Source of the DNA: Zea mays
Taxonomy: Eukaryota; Streptophyta; Magnoliopsida; Poales; Poaceae
Assembly (NCBI RefSeq): GCF_902167145.1
Contig: NC_050102.1
Location: forward strand, 13,578,850 to 13,642,849
Direction: 5' to 3'
DNA length: 64,000 nt
Below are positions 47,746-61,413 of the stretch, one piece after another. The position numbers and the translations under genes are program-made. How positions within the stretch are numbered: the stretch's first letter is position 1; every line of letters starts with the position of its first letter. The notes beneath the pieces are model-generated. The model saw only the letters and a list, made by a program, of their open reading frames with translations. It ran no database searches and was not told the origin of the DNA.

Positions 47746-49039
47746 ATGTCGGGAGCATCCGCCAAGAGGCAGATCAGGACCAGCGACAAGTCCGCAAGCT
47801 CGGGGAGAACGCACTCAAGGGAGTTCGCCCACAAGCACAAGGAGGAATCCTCTTCCTCCATCAAGTCCCAACGGAAGGGTGATAAGAAGAAGAAGATGAA
47901 GAAGGTGGTCTACTACGAGACCGACTCTTCGTCACCCTCCACCTCTGGCTCGGAATCGGCATCCGTCACTTCCAAGCGCCATGAGCGCAAGAAGTATAGT
48001 AAGATGCCCCTTCGCTATCCTCGTATTTCAAAACGCACTCCATTACTTTCTGTCCCATTAGGCAAACCACCTATGTTTGATGGTGAAGATTATTCTATGT
48101 GGAGTGATAAAATGAGGCATCACCTAACCTCACTCCACAAAAGCATATTGGATATTTTTGAGTATGGAGCGCAGGTACCAAAGGAAGGGGACAAGGATTA
48201 TGATTCGGAGGAGGTCGAACAAATCCAACACTTCAACTCCCAAGCCACTACTATACTCCTCGCCTCTCTAAGTCAAGAGGAGTATAATAAGGTGCAAGGG
48301 TTGAAGAGCGCAAAGGAGATTTGGGACGTGCTCAAGACCGCGCACGAAGGAGACGAGGTGACCAAGATCACCAAGAGGGAGACGATCGAGGGGGAGCTCG
48401 GTCGATTCATGCTTCACCAAGGGGAGGAGCCACAAGCGATGTACAACCGGCTCAAGACCTTGGTGAACCAAGTGCGCAACCTCGGGAGCACCAAATGGGA
48501 TGACCATGAGATGGTCAAGGTTATTCTTAGATCACTCGTTTTTCTTAACCCTACACAAGTTCAATTAATTCGTGGTGATCCAAGGTATAAACTAATGTCT
48601 CTCGAGGAAGTAATAGGAAAATTTGTGAGCTTTGAATTGATGATCAAAGGCTCAAAGAAGATCATCGAGCAAGGCGCTTCCTCCTCCATACCCGAGGCAC
48701 AACCCGTTGCATTCAAGGCAACGGAGGAGAAGAAAGAAGACTCTACACCAAGTAGGGTCCCCATCGACGCCTCCAAGCTCGACAATGAGGAGATGGCGCT
48801 CATCATCAAGAGCTTCTGCCAAATCCTCAAGCAAAGGAGGGGGAAAGACTACAAGTCCCGCTCCAAGAAGGTTTGCTACAAATGTGGTAAGCCCAGTCAT
48901 TTTATCGCTAAATGTCCTTTGTCTAGTGATAGTGACAGGGATAACGACAAGAGGGGGAAGAAGAAGGAAAAGAAGAGATATTACAAGAAGAAGGGCGGTG
49001 ATGCCCATGTTTGCCGGGAGTGGGACTCCGACGAGAGCT
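47746..49039 (+). pseudogene. gag: SIRE B gag, N-terminal part
   Basis: MSGASAKRQIRTSDKSASSG at the first ATG, Lys-rich tract, gag core MWSDKMRHHLTSLHKSILDI, zinc knuckle CYKCGKPSHFIAKC, then KKGGDAHVCREWDSDES, where element E cuts it. No internal stop in this part. The four-residue spacing of the CX2CX4HX4C knuckle is kept. Confidence 0.9.
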
Positions 49040-49597
49040 TGTCACACCCGGTTTTAGAAGGCAAACCGAATGCGAACCATGTACGTGCCAGGATCAGTTA
49101 TTCACGTACACAGCAGTTACATAATATGGACATCATCACACAGTGCTCAAAATAGTATTAATAAGGGAAATAGTCGATTACATCATACGTCTGAGACGTC
49201 CATATAGTTCTTACAATAAATCAAAGTGCGGAAAAGAAACGTAGATAACGCGGCCTTCACAGGCAGCCGACTGGGGGTTGCCGCTAACCCACACCTAGAA
49301 CTCGTCGTAATCTTGGAACTCCTGGAAGTCTCCTTCCACAGCTTCATCTTCGCCTGAGCAGTGGTTGCAATGCTGACAACCTGGGGGGGGTTTGGTGTGT
49401 AGAGCAAGGGTGAGTACACATCAACATACTCAGCAAGTATCCTGTTTGGCTGTAGTGGACTAGCTTTATGTGGGGATAAGTCAAGCAGTTGCTTTTAGTT
49501 GGTCAGATTATTACTTACTAGTAGAAAGCCAAGTTTTAGCATTAACCCAAGTTATTAACCCAGACGTACTCCTTTCCAAACGGAAAGAGTACCACTT
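49040..49597 (-). repeat. Inverted LTR end of element E (558 bp)
   Basis: Reverse complement of 59514-60071. Its outermost 279 bp (49040-49318) read identical, inverted, to 49596-49874. It shares with that arm two bases that differ from the 3' LTR (CATACG/CGTATG followed by A, and GGCTGCCTG instead of GGCTGCATG). Confidence 0.9.
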
Positions 49598-49874
49598 CCA
49601 AGATTACGACGAGTTCTAGGTGTGGGTTAGCGGCAACCCCCAGTCGGCTGCCTGTGAAGGCCGCGTTATCTACGTTTCTTTTCCGCACTTTGATTTATTG
49701 TAAGAACTATATGGACGTCTCAGACGTATGATGTAATCGACTATTTCCCTTATTAATACTATTTTGAGCACTGTGTGATGATGTCCATATTATGTAACTG
49801 CTGTGTACGTGAATAACTGATCCTGGCACGTACATGGTTCGCATTCGGTTTGCCTTCTAAAACCGGGTGTGACA
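49596..49874 (+). repeat. Direct LTR end of element E (279 bp)
   Basis: Matches the last 279 bp of the 3' LTR in plus orientation and ends GGGTGTGACA. The junction to the inverted copy is at a 2-bp overlap (TT). Confidence 0.9.
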
Positions 49875-50866
49875 TAAGTGGGATAGCGTTTCCCGCCAAC
49901 CTTATAGTAATGGGTACTCAGGGAATAGATGTCATCCTAGGGATGAATTGGCTAGATAAGTATCAGGCAGTGATCAGTTGTGATAAAAGGACAATCAAGT
50001 TAGTGTCCCCACTAGGAGAGGAAGTGGTGACTGAGTTAGTCCCGCCTGAGCCAAAGAAAGGAAGTTGTTATCAGATGCCTGTCGATAGCAGTGAAGCAGA
50101 TCCAATTGAGAGTATCAAGGTTGTGTCTGAATTCCCAGATGTGTTTCCAAAGGACTTACCGGGTATGCCACCAGAGCGGAAAGTTGAGTTTGCCATAGAG
50201 CTTATTCCTGGAACCGCCCCCATCTTCAAGAGAGCTTACAGAATATCTGGACCAGAGTTGGATGAACTTAAGAAGCAAATTGATGAGCTGTCAGAGAAAG
50301 GTTACATCCGGCCAAGCACCTCGCCTTGGGCCGCCCCTGTCCTATTTGTGGAGAAGAAAGATGGCACCAAGAGGATGTGTATCGATTATCGAGCTTTGAA
50401 TGAGGTCACGATCAAGAACAAGTATCCCTTGCCCAGAATAGAAGATCTGTTCGACCAGTTGAGAGGAGCCAGTGTGTTCTCCAAGATAGATCTGAGGTCA
50501 GGTTATCATCAGCTCAGGATCCGACCTTCGGACATTCCGAAGACGGCCTTCATTTCCAAGTATGGTTTGTATGAGTTCACAGTGATGTCTTTTGGTTTGA
50601 CCAATGCGCCAGCGTTCTTCATGAACTTGATGAACAGTGTATTCATGGATTACCTTGATAAGTTTGTGGTGGTATTCATTGATGACATTCTGGTTTATTC
50701 TCAAAGCGAAGAAGAGCATGCAAGTCATTTGAGGATGGTATTGCAGAGATTGCGAGAGCACCAGTTGTATGCAAAGTTGAGCAAGTGTGAGTTCTGGATC
50801 AGCGAAGTCCTGTTCTTGGGTCACATAATCAACAAGGAAGGATTGGCTGTGGATCCGAAGAAAGTG
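49875..50866 (+). pseudogene. Duplicated pol fragment (protease end and RT) in the leader of E
   Basis: Bases 49881-50866 match 54218-55203 of the same element over 986 bp without net indels and about 9 substitutions by eye. It encodes [20 protein letters not shown] to GLAVDPKKV, including RT motif [12 protein letters not shown]. Left junction: GTGTGACATAAGTGGG against GTGTGAAAATAAGGGGG at 54204, a GTGTGA microhomology. Right junction: after AAAGTG it passes into leader sequence. It has no start of its own and is not a gene. Confidence 0.88.
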
Positions 50867-50959
50867 TGTTTTATTCTAATCCTTCATTTACTTATGATTC
50901 ATTATTTGCTGGTCATATTAATTCTGTTCTCACCCTTTTGCTTGTGATGTCTTTTGTAG
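50867..50959 (+). promoter_or_regulatory. Truncated leader of E ending in a 3'-splice-site-like sequence
   Basis: Pyrimidine-rich (ctcacccttttgcttg, then cttttgtag). The AG at 50958-50959 directly precedes the ATG of the accessory ORF, the form of a plant intron acceptor. Confidence 0.5.
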
Positions 50960-51973
50960 ATGGCTCGACTTAGACACACTGCACGAAAGTCAGTCATCCC
51001 CTTCTTACCCTCCCGCCTTGCTGAGCGTCCGCTTCGCCGTCCCGTGGCCGGACAGTCCAGCCACTTGGAGAGACTACACCACCGCCTGCGTGAGGAGCAG
51101 GAACGTCGACGACAGGAGCAGCAGGGCTCTTCCTTCTCGCTCCACCAGGAGATAGAGTCTGTGAGGAGCTGCTCCCCTGTGCTTCCTCTGGAGCCGCCCC
51201 CTGCACCACCACTGGGCGCCCCAGCTTCTGGAGTAGCTGCTGGAGGAGACCCAGACGACGGAGATGGCGACGACAGCTCGAGCCACGACACCGACTTCTC
51301 TGCTAACCCTGAGCCGGAAGGATGGGTTGCTCGACCCATCACTCGCGACGCTGCTCGCGGGTGTCACTTCCACGATGCGCTCGACACCCTGCTACGTCGG
51401 GCATTTAACCGGCATACTTGGTCCGTCGAGTATCGCTGTGTGGTCTACCAGCATAGTCGCGGGGTCTACCCGGACCGCTGGGAGGCAACTTGCTTGGTGC
51501 GCTGCCCGGAGAACAGTCTCCAGGGTGCAGAGGCCTGTTCAGAGCACTATTCTATCTCTGAGCGGGACTCAGCTGAGGCAGCCATGCAAGATGCTGCACG
51601 GCGTGCGCTTTCGCACTACTGCTCGGTTTTCGGTGGGGCAGCTGATGGTCTTGACCTGAAGTATTACCCCCGCTGTCCATCTGGCAGCACAGGAGGCGTG
51701 ATTGTCTCACCTGTCGGTGAGGGCAATCCTAGGTTGAGCAGCACAGTCAACCTAGCCGCCGTGCTAAACACGGAGCTGGACCATGCATTAGATGAGCTGA
51801 GTAGGGCCCGTGCTGAGATCGCCCTGCTGCGGGCTGAGCGCGCGGAACGTCGTCACTTGGATGGTGGTTCCCCCGCTCCCGTCGGGACTCAGCACCCGTA
51901 CCGCTCACCTCAGCGTGGACACCAGTCTTATGGCAATCCCGCCTGCAAGACCAAGATAACTCTAGAGCCATAG
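50960..51973 (+). CDS. Chromovirus E accessory protein with histone H3-like N-terminus
   Basis: 337-aa intact frame between leader and gag. Start MARLRHTARKSVIPF: after Met removal, residues 1, 2 and 6-10 equal those of histone H3 (A R . . . T A R K S), with Arg at position 4. Then a basic/Gln-rich helix (32-55), a Pro-rich segment (73-90), an acidic stretch (97-110), a probable folded domain (150-225: WSVEYRCVVYQ, WEATCLVRC, AAMQDAARRALSHY) with an alternating strand-then-helix look somewhat like a dsRNA-binding fold, and a coiled coil (262-300). Accessory ORFs upstream of gag are known in grass Gypsy elements; function unknown. The resemblance to H3 is seen; any chromatin role is inference. 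Confidence 0.7.
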   Translation: MARLRHTARKSVIPFLPSRLAERPLRRPVAGQSSHLERLHHRLREEQERRRQEQQGSSFSLHQEIESVRSCSPVLPLEPPPAPPLGAPASGVAAGGDPDDGDGDDSSSHDTDFSANPEPEGWVARPITRDAARGCHFHDALDTLLRRAFNRHTWSVEYRCVVYQHSRGVYPDRWEATCLVRCPENSLQGAEACSEHYSISERDSAEAAMQDAARRALSHYCSVFGGAADGLDLKYYPRCPSGSTGGVIVSPVGEGNPRLSSTVNLAAVLNTELDHALDELSRARAEIALLRAERAERRHLDGGSPAPVGTQHPYRSPQRGHQSYGNPACKTKITLEP

Positions 51974-52209
51974 ATTGTTAGAGTTGGATCTTGTAATTAA
52001 TACGAAATATATACATAGAAGCTTCAGTTTTAGCTTTAGTCTCAGTCTTAGTTAGTCTTAGTTAGACAGGGTAGTTTGCTATATCCTGTGCATCTATGTT
52101 TGTCATGATGAACTATGTTTGGTTTGGATCTTTGTAATGATTGTCACCAGAGTGTGGGTATCCCCTGCATTTTGGTTTACCTATTATGTTAATAAGAGTT
52201 AGTTATATA
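51974..52209 (+). other. Spacer of E between accessory ORF and MITE
   Basis: AT-rich, noncoding, with repeated 'cttagt' units at about 52038-52070. May be intron-like, given the acceptor-like AG before gag. Confidence 0.5.
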
Positions 52210-52612
52210 GGGCCTGTTTGTTTACCCCAATGGATTATATAATCTGGATTATTTTTGGATGATTATATAATCTGGATTATATAATTTAGATTATATAATC
52301 TGAGTAGTCTTGTTTGTTTACCCAGATTATCTGGCGTGTTTCTGTTGGGCGGCGAGCTTCTCCGATCCGATAGGCGCAAAAACGATTCGGTAGATTATAA
52401 TGGCAATGGTGGGTAATTTCTAGGAAACTTGAAAGGGTAGTGGGGAAGTGGGAAAAAAATAATCTGAAATAAGCACCTCCTCACTTGCTTATGGATTATC
52501 ATAATCCAAGGGGTTAGATTATATAATCTGGGCAAATAAGCTAGACTGTTTGTTTGCCTCTTAGGATTATTTAATCCAGATTATATAATCTGGGAGGTAA
52601 ACAAACAGGCCC
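52210..52612. mobile_element. hAT-like MITE inside element E
   Basis: 403 bp with terminal inverted repeats GGGCCTGTTTGTTTACC (left) and GGTAAACAAACAGGCCC (right), and many internal copies of the palindrome GGATTATATAATCC or close variants. No coding capacity. An exact 8-bp target duplication was not found, so the exact ends could be off by 1-2 bp. The terminal repeat and content suggest the hAT group. Confidence 0.85.
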
Positions 52613-52764
52613 ATAGTTGGGAAACCCCTTTTATTCCACTTTCCTTTCTATCTGAGAAGCTGTGTGGTCTGTGTTGGAGATCAGTGAAGATGCTCATCTG
52701 TTCAGTGCTGTTGAAGAATTCTCTTCTCTTTTCTTATGCTGCAAGATCTGCCAGATCAGTTCTG

Positions 52765-52785
52765 ATGTGTGGTTGCATTCTGCAG
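52765..52785 (+). promoter_or_regulatory. 3'-splice-site-like sequence just before gag-pol
   Basis: TGTGTGGTTGCATTCTGCAG, with the AG at 52784-52785 directly preceding the ATG at 52786; the same layout as before the accessory ORF. Confidence 0.45.
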
Positions 52786-55700
52786 ATGTCAGAAAACAGG
52801 CGCAGAGGAGGAAGGCGTGCTCAGCAGGAGCGAGCCGCTCAACAGGAGGAGGTGCCTCAGCAGCAGCACCTGCCGCCCCCGCCCCCGATGTCGATCGAGC
52901 AGATGTTTCTGATGCAGACTCAGGCAGTTCAGGCCATCGGTCAGACTCTGGCCGCCATTCAGCAGCAGCAGCAGCAACAGCAGCAAGCACCACCCCAGCC
53001 TCAGATGCCTCAAATGCCCAGAGACAAGCGTGCTGAATTCATGAGAGGTCATCCCCCAACGTTCGCTCACTCTTCTGACCCCATGGATGCTGAAGATTGG
53101 CTGCGCACTGTGGAGCGGGAGTTGCATACCGCTCAGTGTGATGACAGGGAGAAAGTTCTGTATGGTCCCCGTCTGTTGAGAGGAGCAGCCCAGTCATGGT
53201 GGGAGTCTTACCTCGCCACCCATGCCCATCCTGACGCCATCACTTGGGAAGAGTTCAGAGGTAGCTTTCGTCAGTACCATGTTCCTGCAGGTCTGATGAC
53301 AGTGAAGAAGGAGGAGTTCCTGGCCCTCAAGCAAGGGTCATCATCTGTCAGTGAGTACCGGGACAAGTTTCTGCAATTGTCTCGCTATGCTCCTGAAGAT
53401 GTCAACACCGACGCCAAGCGACAGTACCGTTTCCTGAGAGGCTTGGTTGACCCTCTGCAGTATCAACTGATGAATCACACCTTCCCGACATTCCAGCACC
53501 TGATTGACAGAGCAATCATGACGGAGAGAAAGCGCAAGGAGATGGAAGATCGTAAGCGCAAGATCAGTGGACCCCAGCCTGGAAGCAGCAATCGTCCTCG
53601 TTTCTCAGGCAATCAACCTCAGCAGTTCAGGCAGAACCAGCGTCCACCTCAGCAGCATCAGCAGTTTCAAAGGCAGTACCCTCAGAATCAGTACCAGAAC
53701 CGTCAGAGCAACCAGTCAGGAGGTCAGTTTCCGAGGCAGAATCAGCAGGCACCTCGTCTTCCTGCCCCAGCAAACCAGCAGAACAGTCAGGCAGCACCAG
53801 CTCAGGTTGGAAACAGAGCATGTTTCCACTGTGGAGAGCAAGGCCACTGGGTGATGCAATGTCCGAAGAAGGCAGCCCAGCAGCAGTCAGGCCCCAATGC
53901 CCCAGCGAAGCAGAATATGCCTCAGCCTGGAGCAGGCAACCGCTCTCAGCCGCGCTATAATCATGGAAGGCTGAACCACTTGGAAGCTGAAGCAGTTCAG
54001 GAGACCCCCGGCATGATAGTAGGTATGTTCCCAGTCGACTCCCATATTGCAGAAGTGTTATTTGATACTGGAGCAACGCATTCTTTCATTACTGCATCAT
54101 GGGTAGAAGCACATAATCTTCCAATTACTACCATGTCAACCCCCATTCAAATCGACTCAGCCGGTGGTAGAATTCGAGCCGATAGCATTTGTTTGAATAT
54201 AAGTGTGAAAATAAGGGGGATAGCGTTTCCCGCCAACCTTATAGTAATGGGTACTCAGGGAATAGATGTCATCCTAGGGATGAATTGGCTAGATAAGTAT
54301 CAGGCAGTGATCAGTTGTGATAAAAGGACAATCAAGTTAGTGTCCCCACTAGGAGAGGAAGTGGTGACTGAGTTAGTCCCGCCTGAGCCAAAGAAAGGAA
54401 GTTGTTATCAGATGGCTGTCGATAGCAGTGAAGCAGATCCAATTGAGAGTATCAAGGTTGTGTCTGAATTCCCAGATGTGTTTCCAAAGGACTTACCGGG
54501 TATGCCACCAGAGCGGAAAGTTGAGTTTGCCATAGAGCTTATTCCTGGAACCGCCCCTATCTTCAAGAGAGCTTACAGAATATCTGGACCAGAGTTGGTT
54601 GAGCTTAAGAAGCAAATTGATGAGCTGTCAGAGAAAGGTTACATCCGGCCAAGCACCTCGCCTTGGGCCGCCCCTGTCCTATTTGTGGAGAAGAAAGATG
54701 GCACCAAGAGGATGTGTATCGATTATCGAGCTTTGAATGAGGTCACGATCAAGAACAAGTATCCCTTGCCCAGAATAGAAGATCTGTTCGACCAGTTGAG
54801 AGGAGCCAGTGTGTTCTCCAAGATAGATCTGAGGTCAGGTTATCATCAGCTCAGGATCCGACCTTCGGACATTCCGAAGACGGCATTCATTTCCAAGTAT
54901 GGGTTGTATGAGTTCACAGTGATGTCTTTCGGTTTGACCAATGCGCCCGCATTCTTCATGAACTTGATGAACAGTGTATTCATGGATTACCTTGATAAGT
55001 TTGTGGTGGTATTCATTGATGACATTCTGGTTTATTCTCAAAGCGAAGAAGAGCATGCAAGTCATTTGAGGATGGTATTGCAGAGATTGCGAGAGCACCA
55101 GTTGTATGCAAAGTTGAGCAAGTGTGAGTTCTGGATCAGCGAAGTCCTGTTCTTGGGTCACATAATCAACAAGGAAGGATTGGCTGTGGATCCGAAGAAA
55201 GTGGCAGACATTTTGAACTGGAAAGCGCCAACAGATGCTAGAGGAATCAAGAGTTTCATTGGAATGGCCGGATATTATCGGCGATTCATTGAAGGGTTTT
55301 CGAAGATTGCGAAACCAATGACAGCGTTGCTAGGCAACAAGGTTGAGTTCAAGTGGACCCAGAAATGCCAAGAGGCCTTTGAAGCGCTGAAAGAGAAGTT
55401 GACTACAGCGCCTGTCCTAGTCTTGCCTGATGTGCACAAGCCCTTCTCGGTGTATTGCGATGCTTGTTACACAGGTTTGGGATGTGTGTTGATGCAAGAG
55501 GGGAGAGTTGTGGCTTACTCGTCCCGACAGTTGAAGGTTCATGAGAAGAATTACCCAATCCATGATCTAGAGTTGGCAGCAGTGGTTCACGCACTGAAGA
55601 CATGGAGGCACTACCTGTATGGACAGAAATGCGATGTTTACACAGATCACAAGAGTCTAAAGTACATATTCACTCAGTCAGAGTTGAACATGAGGCAACG

Positions 55701-57348
55701 AAGATGGTTAGAGTTGATTAAAGACTATGAGTTGGAAATTCATTACCATCCAGGCAAAGCAAACGTAGTGGCAGATGCTTTGAGCAGAAAGAGTCAAGTC
55801 AATCTGATGGTCGCTCGCCCGATGCCTTATGAGTTGGCCAAGGAGTTTGACAGGTTGAGTCTCGGATTTCTGAACAATTCGCGAGGAGTCACAGTTGAAT
55901 TGGAACCTACCTTGGAGCGAGAAATCAAAGAAGCGCAGAAGAATGATGAAAAGATCAGTGAGATTCGGCGACTGATTCTGGAAGGCAAAGGCAAAGATTT
56001 TCGAGAAGATGCAGAAGGCGTGATATGGTTCAAAGACCGCTTGTGTGTTCCCAATGTCCAGTCTATTCGGGAGTTGATTCTTAAGGAAGCTCATGAGACC
56101 GCTTATTCGATTCACCCTGGCAGTGAGAAGATGTATCAGGATCTGAAGAAGAAATTCTGGTGGTACGGAATGAAGAGGGAAATCGCAGAACATGTGGCTA
56201 TGTGCGATAGTTGCCGAAGAATTAAGGCAGAGCACCAGAGACCAGCTGGATTGTTGCAACCGTTGCAGATCCCTCAGTGGAAATGGGATGAAATCGGTAT
56301 GGATTTCATAGTCGGATTGCCTCGCACTCGAGCCGGCTACGATTCTATCTGGGTAGTGGTGGACCGTTTGACCAAGTCAGCCCACTTCATACCTGTCAAG
56401 ACCAGCTACAACAGTGCAGTATTGGCAGAATTGTATATGTCTCGGATCGTTTGTCTTCATGGTGTGCCAAAGAAGATAGTGTCAGACAGGGGAACGCAGT
56501 TCACCTCTCATTTCTGGCAGCAGTTGCATGAAGCTTTGGGCACGCATCTGAATTTCAGTTCAGCTTATCATCCGCAGACAGATGGCCAGACCGAAAGAAC
56601 CAATCAAATTCTCGAAGATATGTTGAGAGCCTGTGCGTTGCAAGATCAGTCCGGATGGGATAAGAGATTGCCTTATGCAGAGTTTTCCTATAACAACAGT
56701 TACCAGGCCAGTTTGAAGATGTCACCGTTTCAAGCGCTTTATGGAAGGAGTTGTAGAACTCCGTTGCAATGGGATCAGCCTGGAGAGAAGCAAGTGTTTG
56801 GGCCAGACATTTTGCTTGAAGCCGAAGAGAACATCAAGATGGTTCGAGAGAATCTGAAGATAGCGCAATCGAGGCAGCGAAGCTATGCAGACACAAGAAG
56901 AAGAGAGCTGAGTTTTGAAGTCGGAGATTTTGTCTATCTGAAAGTGTCACCGATCAGAGGGGTCAGAAGATTCGGAGTGAAAGGCAAGCTAGCACCCCGC
57001 TACATTGGTCCGTATCAGATTCTTGCAAGACGAGGAGAAGTGGCCTATCAGCTCAGTTTGCCAGAGAATTTGTCTGCTGTGCATGATGTCTTTCATGTGT
57101 CTCAGTTGAAGAAGTGCTTGCGTGTGCCGGAAGAGCAGTTGCCAGTGGAAGGTCTTGAGGTCCAGGAGGACTTGACCTATGTTGAGAAGCCAGCTCAGAT
57201 CCTTGAGATTGCAGATAGAGTCACCCGAAGGAAGACCATCAGAATGTGCAAAGTCAGATGGAATCACCACTCTGAGGAAGAAGCAACCTGGGAGCGTGAA
57301 GATGATCTAGTGGCCAAGTACCCAGAGCTCTTTGCTAGCCAGCCCTGA
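52786..57348 (+). CDS. gag-pol: Chromovirus E gag-pol polyprotein, intact
   Basis: 1520 aa, one open frame. The frame extends to 52684 upstream, but [14 protein letters not shown] at 52786 is the likely start because of the acceptor-like AG and the typical gag N-terminus. Domains: Gln/Pro-rich head (20-80), gag core about 85-220 ([14 protein letters not shown]), zinc knuckle [14 protein letters not shown] (about 346-359), aspartic protease [10 protein letters not shown] (about 423), RT about 600-780 with [11 protein letters not shown] (about 742), RNase H about 880-1010 ([12 protein letters not shown]), integrase with CDSCRRIK and catalytic GMDFIVGLP / SDRGTQFTS / DGQTERTNQ (1160-1275), and a chromodomain (about 1463-1515, [17 protein letters not shown]). 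All key residues are present; this looks recent. The chromodomain class directs integration to heterochromatin. Confidence 0.95.
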
Positions 57349-57370
57349 ATCTCGAGGGCGAGATTCTTTT

Positions 57371-57384
57371 AAGGGGGATAGGTT
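57371..57384 (+). other. Polypurine tract of E
   Basis: AAGGGGGATAGGTT directly before the 3' LTR; primes plus-strand synthesis. Confidence 0.85.
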
Positions 57385-60071
57385 TGTAACGCCCCGAATT
57401 TTGCAGTTGAATTTTTTTTCTTTTTCTTTACTCGCCAAAATTCGGGCGTTACCTTTTCTTTTTCTTTTTCCCTCGCTAAACCTTGACCTTTTCCAAAGTT
57501 CTAGCGGGATTCGGTTTGGAATTCCCGTGTAAGAAAAACCCTAAATACTTTATGTTGTTTGATGCACCATGCCGAACCTTGCATTTCTTTTGATTGCTTT
57601 GAAAGTGCAAATGCATTCATGTAGAAAGATCGGATTTCGAAAATAAGGAGAAGATCTTTTCTTTCTTTTTCTCTCTCTTTCTCTCTCCTCTTTTTCTCTC
57701 TCTCCCGCGCCGTGGGCCGACCCCGGCCGGCCCAGCCGCCCCTGGCGCCCCCTCTTGGGCCTTGGCAGGCCCAACCGCCCCCCCCCCCCCACCTCCCCTT
57801 TTTCCCCCAATTCTTTCTCCCTCCCTCTCATTTTCTCTCATTTTCTCTCCCCCACCCTAAGCCGCCGCCGCCCCTGCCCCCTGCCCAACCGCCGCCCTGC
57901 CCTAGCGCCGGCCGCCGCCCCCCGCCGTCGGCCGCCCCCGCCGGTGAGCCCCCCCTCCTCCCTCTCTCCCTCCTCCCTCCCTCTCCCCTCTCCCCTCCTC
58001 TCTCCTCGGCCACCGCCCCAGCCGCGCTCGCCTGGCCGCCCTGGCCGCGCGCCCGCCTGGCCGCCCTGGCCGCGCGCCCGCTTGGCCGTCCGGCCGCCTG
58101 GCCGCCTGGCCGCCCTGGCCGCGCGCCCGCCTGGCCCTGGCCGCGCCCCCTGGCCGCTCGGCCGGCTCGGCCGCCCTGGCCAGCCCGGCCGCCCCCTCCC
58201 CCGCGCGCTTGCCTGGCCCCTGGCCGCGCCCCCTGCGCAGGGCCGGTTCAACTGCCCCCCCCCCTCTGTTTTTTTTATTTTTTTTATTTTATTTTATTTA
58301 CTTTCTGTGATCCTAGTTACTTTATTTTAGGTAGGTTAATCATTGTTCATGTTATTGAAATAGGAAGTTTAATTTAAAATTCCGTTATACTAATTGATTC
58401 ATGTAGTTAATTGTTTATCTCGTGCAATGTTGATCAACTTAAAGTGATTAGGTTTCCATTAGTGTATATGTAACAGAATTCTTTTGTTAAGAACCAATTG
58501 TAATTGATCGTTAGTGCATAAGATTTAACCCCCTGCGAGATCCTTTCCCGTTTCTTTCTAACCATAACAAATGCGATATCGAATGTCATACTTGATGCAT
58601 ACTCACTTTATTTGTTCCCTTGTATGGTGTACTATTCTTTTGTATTAAATGTGGATGGATGTATGTATGTTTGCAATCGCATAGAGAACGATCCGGTCGA
58701 AGAGCCCGAGGAATTCGCAGGAGAAGCCCCTGAGCAGCAGTCGGTTGGTGGAGGCAAGTGTCCTTTGACCTATCTCTGTCCTATTCATTATTTAATTCAC
58801 CTCCCGCTTTACACATTCATGCCTAAGGATTGACTAGTTTTGTTATCCATGTCCTTGTTTACCTATCTGGGTTGGATTATTACTGTTTAGCTTTATGCTA
58901 TTGCTCAAACTTTAATCAATGAACATGATGTGGTTATCTATGATACGCTGTTTTCCCTTCTCTTATTATGATGTGGTACTTGTGGTCTTCAAGGGGGCTC
59001 GAGCGGTTTCTCGAGTGCCTCTCCGTAAGGACCTGTTCTATGGATGACCGCCCGGGAAAACAGTGCAACCATAAGGGTGGAATGGGGTGCCCTTAGCTGA
59101 ATAATTAGAGGATCCGGGATGTAGTTCACTTAGCCGTCGTGCCGTCAATGGGGCTCGGTGTATGCGGCTCGCTCTGCCAAGTTTGGGTTCGCCCCTTGGG
59201 GAGGAGTGCGGTGCATTTAGGAAACCTAACGGGTGGCTACAGCCCCGGGGAATCTTTGTAAAGGCTTCGTAGTGAATCCCTGGCCATTCACCTCGGGAGT
59301 GAATAAGGGTCTTGCAAGCCCGGGCCAGAGAGGGAATCACGGCTTGTGGGTAAAGTGCACAACCTCTGCAGAGTGTTATGAAACTGATATATCAGCCGTG
59401 CTCACGGTTATGAGCGGCCAAGGGAGCTCCAGTGATTAGTGGTACTTGATCAGAGACATTATGGTACAGGTGGATATGAGATCGATGATTCTGGTTATGA
59501 TTATGGTGCTGGTAAGTGGTACTCTTTCCGTTTGGAAAGGAGTACGTCTGGGTTAATAACTTGGGTTAATGCTAAAACTTGGCTTTCTACTAGTAAGTAA
59601 TAATCTGACCAACTAAAAGCAACTGCTTGACTTATCCCCACATAAAGCTAGTCCACTACAGCCAAACAGGATACTTGCTGAGTATGTTGATGTGTACTCA
59701 CCCTTGCTCTACACACCAAACCCCCCCCAGGTTGTCAGCATTGCAACCACTGCTCAGGCGAAGATGAAGCTGTGGAAGGAGACTTCCAGGAGTTCCAAGA
59801 TTACGACGAGTTCTAGGTGTGGGTTAGCGGCAACCCCCAGTCGGCTGCATGTGAAGGCCGCGTTATCTACGTTTCTTTTCCGCACTTTGATTTATTGTAA
59901 GAACTATATGGACGTCTCAGACGTATGGTGTAATCGACTATTTCCCTTATTAATACTATTTTGAGCACTGTGTGATGATGTCCATATTATGTAACTGCTG
60001 TGTACGTGAATAACTGATCCTGGCACGTACATGGTTCGCATTCGGTTTGCCTTCTAAAACCGGGTGTGACA
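57385..60071 (+). repeat. 3' LTR of chromovirus E
   Basis: 2687 bp, TGTAACGCCCCGAATT to CCGGGTGTGACA. It contains a C/T-rich and GC-rich block (57660-58260) with many short repeats of CTGGCCGCGCGCCCGC and CCCTCTC types, then AT-rich DNA. The long Pro/Arg-rich open frames in the GC-rich block are compositional. The final 558 bp are repeated inverted at the left end of the element. Confidence 0.9.
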
Positions 60072-61413
60072 GAGCTCCACCGACTCCTCCGACGAGGACG
60101 CCGCCAACATCGCCGTCAACAAGGGACTTCTCTTCCCCAACGTTGGCCACAAGTGCCTCATGGCAAAGGACAGCAAGAAGAAGAAGGTAAAATCCAGATC
60201 CTCCACTAAATATGCAACATCTAGTGATGAGGCTAATTCTAGTGATGATGAGGATGATTTGTTTACTCTTTTTGCCAATCTTAACATGCAACAAAAGGAG
60301 AAATTAAATGAATTAGTTAGTGCTATTCATGAGAAGGATGAACTCTTGGATAGCCAAGAAGACTTCCTTATTAAAGAAAACAAAAGGCATGTTAAGACTA
60401 AAAATGCTTATGCTCTAGAGGTAGAAAAATGTGAAAAATTAACTAGTGAGATAAGCACTTGCCATGACACTATTTCTAGCCTTAGAAATTAAAATGCCAA
60501 ATTGATTGCTAAGGTTGAGAAATCAAATGTTTGTGATGATTCAATTGTCAATCTTAGAAATAATAATGCTAGTTTAATTGCTAAGATTGATAAATTGGAT
60601 GCATCCCTTTCTAGCCTTAAGATTGAAAATGAAAAATTGATTGATAAGGCTAAAGACTTAGATGTTTGCAATGCTTCTATTTCCAATCTTAGAGATGAAA
60701 ATGCTATTTTACATGCTAAGATTGTTGAACTAAAAACTTGCAAACCCTCTACATCTACCATTGAGCATGTTACAATTTGTACTAGATGTAGAGACATAAA
60801 TGTTGATGCTATTCATGATCACTTAACTTTAATTAAGAAACAAAATGATCACATAGCTCAACTTAGTGCCAAAATTAATGAGCATGACTTAGAGAATGAA
60901 AATTTTAAATTTGCTAGAAGCATGCTCTATAGTGGGAGACACACTGGCATTAAGGATGACATTGGCTTCCAACAGGGAGACAATGTCAAGCTTAATGCCC
61001 CTCCCAAAAGATTGTCTAATTTTGTTAAGGGCAAGGCTCCCATGCCTCAGAATAATGAGGGTTACATTTTATACCCTGCTGGTTATCCTGAGGATAAGAT
61101 TAGGAGAATTCATGCCAAGAAGACTCATTCTACTCACCATGCTTTTATTTATAAGAATGAGGCTTCTAGCTCTAGGTGTTCTACAAATGTTAAAATGCCT
61201 AAGAAGAAAACTCCTATTGCATTAAATGACCATAATATTTCATTCAAGACTTTTGATGCATCTTATGTGCTTACTAACAAATCAGGCAAAGTAGTTGCCA
61301 AATATGTTGGGGGCAAACACAAGAGGTCAAAGACTTGTGTTTGGGTACCCAAGGTGCTTGTTTCTAATGTCAAAGGACCCAAGACCGTTTGGGTACCTAA
61401 GAACAAGGCCTAA
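60072..61413 (+). pseudogene. gag: SIRE B gag, C-terminal part
   Basis: Resumes after E with the duplicated GAGCT: SSTDSSDEDAANIAVNKGLL, then the long coiled coil of 'DSIVNLRNNNASLIAKIDKL'-like repeats, and the end VWVPKNKA with TAA at 61411. A TAA at 60490-60492 interrupts the coiled coil, at a codon that is GAA in SIRE A. Confidence 0.88.

What the first reader, a model, noticed from the sequence alone, without database searches (positions are those of the whole stretch)
49040..60071. A Gypsy element integrated through two U5 ends
Both outer ends of element E are the same LTR end (CCGGGTGTGACA, inverted on the left), yet a perfect 5-bp duplication GAGCT flanks it inside SIRE B gag, whose empty site can be read from SIRE A. 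Normal elements present one U3 end and one U5 end to integrase. Here the 5' LTR is replaced by an inverted 558-bp LTR end fused to a direct 279-bp end, with arms that read as identical. A later inversion would have to break exactly at the target-site boundary, so a cDNA that folded back on itself during reverse transcription and was then integrated by its two U5 ends is the simpler explanation. This is a structure I do not know to be described.
Basis: partly seen in the sequence, partly recalled or inferred. Interest (0 to 1): 0.88.

Follow-up and report, generated by a model that had tools for sequence, protein, structure and literature searches.

The report
Retrotransposon inserted by two identical ends
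A plant jumping gene carries the same LTR end on both sides, probably because its DNA copy folded back on itself while being made and still joined the chromosome cleanly, which would show that a copying mistake usually regarded as a dead end can be rescued.

Summary
Element E (49040-60071, Ty3/Gypsy) has the U5 end of its LTR at both outer ends, a perfect 5-bp duplication (GAGCT), and an uninterrupted empty site in SIRE A. The 5' LTR is replaced by an inverted 558-bp LTR end fused to a direct 279-bp end; the two 279-bp arms are identical.

(1) After the direct U5 end E keeps the family's TAAG spacer and first PBS bases (TGG), then 985 bp of a second pol copy, then normal leader from about +167. 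(2) The two differences between the arms and E's own 3' LTR both lie at family polymorphisms, so the arms were probably not copied from that LTR. (3) The apex and pol/leader junctions each occur once in the 2.18-Gb assembly.

Best reading: a tRNA-primed minus strand folded back, copied its own 5' end into the PBS, mis-transferred to pol, and was completed on a sister minus strand; integrase then used two U5 ends. An autointegration idea was tested and rejected. Not established: the order of switches, raw-read support, frequency. It is a new variant of the known template-switch insertions.

The parts
49035..49039 (.). Left copy of the 5-bp target-site duplication GAGCT
   Evidence: empty site in SIRE A
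49040..49597 (-). Outer arm: inverted last 558 bp of the LTR; its outer end is a U5 terminus
   Evidence: 2 differences from the 3' LTR
49596..49597 (.). J1, hairpin apex: antisense 59514 joined to sense 59793, 2-nt overlap TT
   Evidence: one place in the assembly with up to 2 mismatches
49596..49874 (+). Inner arm: direct last 279 bp of the LTR, identical to the outer arm
49875..49881 (+). LTR-PBS spacer TAAG plus first PBS bases TGG, kept
   Evidence: Normal LTR-PBS sequence
49880..49881 (.). J2: U5-PBS joined to pol inside the shared GG (pol 54217-54218)
   Evidence: not searched genome-wide (requests unanswered)
49882..50866 (+). Second copy of pol 54219-55203 (end of protease, most of the RT domain), from a sister source
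50866..50867 (.). J3: pol 55203 joined to the leader at about +167, 2-3 nt overlap
   Evidence: one place in the assembly with up to 3 mismatches
50867..52785 (+). Leader of the family, with a 337-aa ORF (50960-51973)
52684..57348 (+). Uninterrupted gag-pol frame: gag, protease, RT, RNase H, integrase
   Evidence: Pfam matches
57370..57381 (+). Polypurine tract before the 3' LTR
   Evidence: function inferred from position
57385..60071 (+). The only complete LTR (3' LTR), 2687 bp
60072..60076 (.). Right copy of the duplication GAGCT

Best explanation
E is a single integration of an abnormal cDNA made from sister RNAs in one particle. Inferred steps: (1) a tRNA-primed minus strand began at the U5 terminus, as normal, and reached 59514, just past a stem-loop. 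(2) Its 3' end folded back to 59793 on its own strand and copied its own 5' part, through the TAAG spacer and into the tRNA-derived PBS (TGG), giving a hairpin that ends like a plus-strand strong-stop DNA. (3) Instead of pairing with the PBS copy of a full minus strand, this 3' end paired with the look-alike GTGTGAAAATAAGGGG in pol, was extended 985 nt, jumped to the leader at about +167 and copied the rest of a normal minus strand out to its U5 terminus. Both strands of the product thus begin with a tRNA-primed U5 end. (4) Integrase trimmed both U5 ends and joined them to GAGCT in SIRE B. Shown: the anatomy, the duplication, the empty site. Supported: that arms and pol fragment come from a source other than E's 3' LTR and main pol. 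Inferred: order and polarity of the switches, and that integrase did the joining.
For: Two U5 ends with a 5-bp duplication and empty site. Arms identical, 279 of 279, as expected if one was copied from the other. Both arm-versus-3'-LTR differences are at 2 of the only 7 positions of 279 with three or more minor-allele copies among 34 copies, with the same alleles. The arm haplotype is held by 14 of 38 typed copies. The inner arm continues into spacer and PBS bases, which a strand copying its own tRNA-primed 5' end would do. The J2 site is the best match in the 6.5-kb body to the 19-mer U5-spacer-PBS end (score 9, next 8). J1 lies 5 nt past a stem-loop (DNA fold z -4.2 and -5.0). Pol fragment: 7 of 9 differences synonymous (P of 2 or fewer nonsynonymous of 9: 0.0005 uniform, 0.009 transitions only). 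LTR termini similar inverted repeats, 9 of 12. J1 and J3 one place each in the assembly.
Against: The minus strand that supplied the pol fragment is not the one that supplied the main pol (9 differences), so an extra template or jump is needed. E's 3' LTR combination (A,G) was seen in 0 of 38 copies, and A at 59849 occurs only with A at 59928 in the other copies (6 of 6), so 59849 might be a separate later change and the two-source argument would then rest on 59928 alone; recurrent mutation at 59928 (G/A) is not excluded. The J2 match is no better than chance maxima: 25 of 30 plain shuffles reach 9 or more. The J1 stem-loop is only 233rd of 2651 windows over the whole LTR, though sixth of 522 in the arm. 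No TATA motif near the fold point was seen, so strong-stop length is unsupported. No raw reads.
Confidence: 0.55

Rival explanations
1. Also born in reverse transcription, but in the other order: the minus strand copying RNA jumped from the leader to pol, from pol back to the U5-PBS region of a second RNA, and then from U5 RNA onto another minus-strand DNA, running off at its U5 end.
For: Overlaps at J2 and J3 fit ordinary RNA-template switching; mixed sources fit two co-packaged RNAs, the model of PMC1950507.
Against: If the strand finished on its own 5' end, the outer arm should carry the 3' LTR alleles at 59849 and 59928; it carries those of the inner arm. A third strand of the same haplotype is then needed.
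Confidence: 0.27
2. A normal element was rearranged after insertion: repair by template switching replaced its 5' LTR with pieces copied from its 3' LTR and from another copy.
For: Both LTR ends begin TGT and the site GAGCTC is a palindrome, so the left joint has a short overlap.
Against: Arms copied from E's own 3' LTR should carry its alleles; they do not. The exact pair of ends is one of 159,163 three-base overlaps in the region tested, or one of 450 with a comparable upstream match (the 3' LTR stood in for the lost 5' LTR). The inner arm continuing into PBS bases is not predicted by copying a 3' LTR.
Confidence: 0.1
3. Assembly or library artefact.
For: No raw reads could be examined; inverted repeats are prone to artefacts.
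Against: An artefact would not be expected to put the U5 terminus exactly at GAGCT opposite the matching duplication, to carry family alleles not in the neighbouring LTR, or to fuse a sister pol copy to the leader. The window has no N.
Confidence: 0.06
4. Autointegration: a U5 end of one cDNA was joined by integrase to an internal polypurine site in pol of another.
For: Pol carries a 12-mer identical to the PPT at the joint; [quoted passage not shown] paper not held).
Against: The joint is not at the CA end: spacer and PBS bases TAAGTGG are kept, which a processed U5 end would have lost.
Confidence: 0.02

Closest known systems
Template-switch complex insertions of grass LTR retrotransposons (Sabot and Schulman 2007, PMC1950507; whole text read)
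   Same: Single duplication around an abnormal composite; explained by switching between two co-packaged RNAs in reverse transcription; integrated by integrase
   Different: Theirs have normal, direct, highly similar outer LTRs and a third internal LTR; E has two U5 ends, an inverted partial LTR and no second full LTR
Self-priming of HIV-1 minus-strand strong-stop DNA (titles of Guo 1997 and Driscoll and Hughes 2000 in reference lists; one passage)
   Same: A tRNA-primed first DNA strand folds back near a hairpin and copies itself
   Different: As I recall, studied in vitro as an unwanted product; E would be an integrated descendant, and its fold is 279 nt away, not local
DIRS-1-like elements (PMC5633606, passages)
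   Same: Inverted LTRs
   Different: Tyrosine recombinase and circular intermediates; E has a DDE integrase domain, a 5-bp duplication and only one complete LTR
Ty1 autointegration circles (PMC4751563, passages)
   Same: LTR ends joined to internal or inverted sequence
   Different: Circles or dead ends made by processed ends; E's inner joint keeps spacer and PBS bases, and E is linear and integrated

Membership tests
Ty3/Gypsy LTR retrotransposon | Gag and pol with protease, RT, RNase H, integrase in Gypsy order | tested here: met
   Pfam matches in that order; rve 32.9 bits against a cut-off of 32.6
Ty3/Gypsy LTR retrotransposon | Two direct LTRs | tested here: not met
   One complete LTR plus an inverted and a direct partial one. 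Family members are normal: 13 same-strand LTR-end pairs and 0 opposite among 40 listed ends
Ty3/Gypsy LTR retrotransposon | Primer binding site after the 5' LTR | tested here: not met
   Only TGG kept; best 12-mer match 10 of 12, inside gag-pol; present in normal copies
Ty3/Gypsy LTR retrotransposon | 5-bp target-site duplication | tested here: met
   GAGCT with empty site
Chromodomain lineage (chromovirus) | C-terminal chromodomain | tested here: inconclusive
   Chromo 19.8 bits, below the cut-off of 25.1
Template-switch complex insertion (PMC1950507) | One duplication flanks the composite | tested here: met
Template-switch complex insertion (PMC1950507) | Similar direct outer LTRs and an internal third LTR | tested here: not met
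Template-switch complex insertion (PMC1950507) | Two parental sequences fused | tested here: met
   Arms and pol fragment carry family alleles other than those of E's 3' LTR and main pol; see caveat on 59849
DIRS-like element | Tyrosine recombinase instead of integrase | tested here: not met
   rve integrase domain found, no recombinase match
Self-primed strong-stop DNA | Fold at the transcription start (3' end of strong-stop DNA) | not testable with these tools
   Start site unknown; no TATA motif near 59484 by eye
Self-primed strong-stop DNA | Copy runs through the strand's own 5' end into tRNA-derived sequence | tested here: met
   Inner arm followed by TAAG and TGG as in normal LTR-PBS; RNA templating would leave the same letters

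The most novel reading that the evidence does not exclude
A self-primed minus strand, usually regarded as a dead end of reverse transcription, served as plus-strand primer, mis-transferred to a PBS-like site in pol, and gave a linear cDNA with two U5 ends that integrase inserted in a concerted way in a plant germ line. Such insertions would be an uncounted class that LTR finders looking for direct LTRs would miss.
Probability: 0.5. Interest if true: 0.75.

Novelty: new variant of a known kind. Interest (0 to 1): 0.6.

Why it matters
Standard models pair one U3 and one U5 end at integration. If the reading is right, two U5 ends are enough in a living plant, and a fold-back of the first DNA strand can be rescued instead of lost. 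The event also leaves a 279-bp perfect inverted repeat (folded as RNA -630.8 kcal/mol against a mean of -232.7 in 20 shuffles), a structure that could give small RNAs against its own family; that is untested. It yields a direct search rule: outward-facing U5 ends that share a 5-bp duplication.

Tried and rejected
Autointegration at a central PPT was my favoured idea, when the joint seemed to sit exactly at the LTR end beside a PPT-like 12-mer. The normal LTR-PBS sequence showed that the joint lies some seven bases further on, inside spacer and PBS, so it was dropped. For the same reason the G-to-T that I first counted as a mutation of the fragment is not one: 10 differences and 3 protein changes become 9 and 2. 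In one search the two remaining protein changes of the fragment were seen in 0 of 120 (P) and 5 of 120 (D) listed relatives, so the fragment carries the rarer residues.

A simple snap-back palindrome was rejected because the arms are 277 nt apart. No relatives were found in viral contigs: 0 matches for the LTR end, and 29 pattern matches for the 337-aa ORF of which none was confirmed. A TATA motif upstream of 59514 was looked for and not seen. Literature searches for such insertions (listings, and passages of some papers) showed no described case; only open-access papers are held.

Limits of counts: one search scored 40 of 278 candidates and does not list E's own arms, so 0 opposite pairs says little about frequency. 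One search scored 40 of 4562 candidates. One search aligned 39 copies and typed 38; one search kept the 34 with at least 95% identity. One search used 16 of 19 loci (the rest under 93% or not covering). One search used 20 sibling pol pieces chosen from the lists. The shuffles were plain, scanned at every fourth position.
Full report
WHAT IS THERE. The window lies on contig C7 of a 2.18-Gb assembly in 655 contigs. Element E occupies 49040-60071 inside the gag of a copia-type element, SIRE B (Pfam Retrotran_gag_2). Its right end is a 2687-bp LTR (57385-60071) that starts TGTAACGCC and ends GTGTGACA. Its left end is the reverse complement of that LTR's last 558 bases (49040-49597), fused to a direct copy of the last 279 (49596-49874). 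The two 279-bp arms are identical; each differs from the 3' LTR at 59849 and 59928. GAGCT stands on both sides, and SIRE A shows the uninterrupted site.

Downstream of the inner arm E does not go straight into a normal leader. Normal copies have the LTR end, a four-base spacer and the PBS TGGTATCAGAGC: 329 + 338 exact places, the spacer being TAAG in nearly all that are listed, and ten fetched loci show it. E has the same through TAAGTGG and then continues in pol: 49882-50866 is a second copy of 54219-55203, with 9 differences in 985. At 50867 the sequence becomes the family's leader, which in normal copies begins 166-168 bp after the LTR end (five loci). So E has three internal junctions: J1 (hairpin apex, 2-nt overlap), J2 (inside TAAG-n-GG, shared by U5-PBS and pol) and J3 (2-3 nt overlap). 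About 160 nt of leader, with most of the PBS, is gone. J1 and J3 each have one place in the assembly. J2 could not be searched; among the 40 of 4562 candidates scored no pol copy is closer than 98% to the fragment except E's main pol at 99%.

TWO SOURCES. Among 34 U5 ends at least 95% identical, 7 of 279 positions have three or more minor-allele copies. Both arm-versus-3'-LTR differences are among these 7, with the same alleles; two independent later changes would do that with p about 7e-5. Of 38 typed copies, 18 are (C,G), 14 are (C,A) like the arms, 6 are (A,A), and none is (A,G) like E's 3' LTR. That last fact cuts both ways: the 3' LTR may be a mosaic, or its A at 59849 a separate later change, in which case the argument rests on 59928 alone. 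The pol fragment agrees with a second source: 7 of 9 differences are synonymous, and among 20 siblings 5 of 9 sites show both states, two are private to the main copy and two to the fragment. The sources were close sisters: in the loop part of the arm, arm and 3' LTR agree at all 11 polymorphic columns listed for 59522-59604 (16 copies), and the main pol is the nearest copy found to the fragment.

HOW IT MOST LIKELY FORMED. Read along the top strand, each joint has a natural place in reverse transcription. A minus strand starts at the U5 terminus next to the tRNA. It stops at 59514, five nt past a stem-loop (DNA fold z -4.2 and -5.0; sixth of 522 windows in the arm but 233rd of 2651 in the whole LTR by RNA energy). 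It folds back to 59793 and copies its own 5' end, which makes identical arms of one haplotype, then the spacer, then TGG from the tRNA. That 3' end is what normally makes the second strand transfer. Here it sits at the best match to U5-spacer-PBS in the 6.5-kb body (score 9, next 8), in pol, then jumps to the leader and follows a normal minus strand to its U5 terminus. The product has two tRNA-primed U5 ends. U3 and U5 termini are similar inverted repeats (9 of 12), so integrase could accept two U5 ends; the 5-bp duplication says that both ends joined one site together. All steps within the particle are inferred.

WHAT SPEAKS AGAINST. The strand that supplied the pol fragment is not the one that supplied the main pol, so an extra template is needed. 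The J2 match is no stronger than chance maxima: 25 of 30 shuffles reach 9 or more. The transcription start is unknown, with no TATA motif near 59484. No reads were available. One example is not a class.

RIVALS. The reverse order (RNA-templated jumps ending on another minus strand) needs a third strand to explain why the outer arm lacks the 3' LTR alleles. Repair after insertion has a sequence basis at the left end (shared TGT and the palindrome GAGCTC), but predicts arms with the 3' LTR alleles; the exact pair of ends is one of 159,163 three-base overlaps in the region tested, or one of 450 with a comparable upstream match. An assembly artefact cannot be excluded without reads but would not explain the duplication or the alleles. 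Autointegration was my own earlier idea and fails, because spacer and PBS bases are kept.

COMPARISON. Sabot and Schulman (PMC1950507, whole text) describe grass insertions within one duplication, explained by switching between two RNAs; theirs keep direct outer LTRs and have an internal third LTR. Self-priming of HIV-1 strong-stop DNA is known to the field (titles in reference lists; one passage). DIRS-1 has inverted LTRs but a tyrosine recombinase (PMC5633606, passages). Ty autointegration can give inverted circles (PMC4751563, passages). No described insertion with two U5 ends appeared in the listings, which cover open-access papers only.

VERDICT. Observation confirmed. Origin in reverse transcription with integration through two U5 ends: about 0.82 in all (0.55 for the self-primed order, 0.27 for the other). 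New variant of a known kind; interest 0.6, held down because it is one case without read support.

Noticed in passing
54212-54223 and 57370-57381: Pol holds a 12-mer TAAGGGGGATAG identical to the polypurine tract before the 3' LTR; it is unchanged in 26 of 26 sibling pol pieces while neighbouring bases vary. A candidate central polypurine tract; coding constraint is not excluded.
   Followed up: partly
50960-51973: A 337-aa open frame in the leader before gag, no Pfam match, 846 homologues among 7994 scored candidates, best 96% identical; function unknown.
   Followed up: partly
52210-52612: A MITE-like insert in the leader with 17-bp terminal inverted repeats GGGCCTGTTTGTTTACC, read by eye.
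   Followed up: no
49040-49874: If transcribed, a near-perfect 279-bp hairpin RNA (-630.8 kcal/mol): possible source of small RNAs against the family.
   Followed up: no
49035-49039 with 60072-60077: The target GAGCTC is a palindrome; the title of PMC6911290 (seen in the listing) says LTR retrotransposons often target palindromes.
   Followed up: no
G000:C3:72290845-72291829 and 72299841-72300825 (L069, L068): Two equally similar pol copies on one strand 9 kb apart: perhaps a tandem or shared-LTR complex of this family.
   Followed up: no
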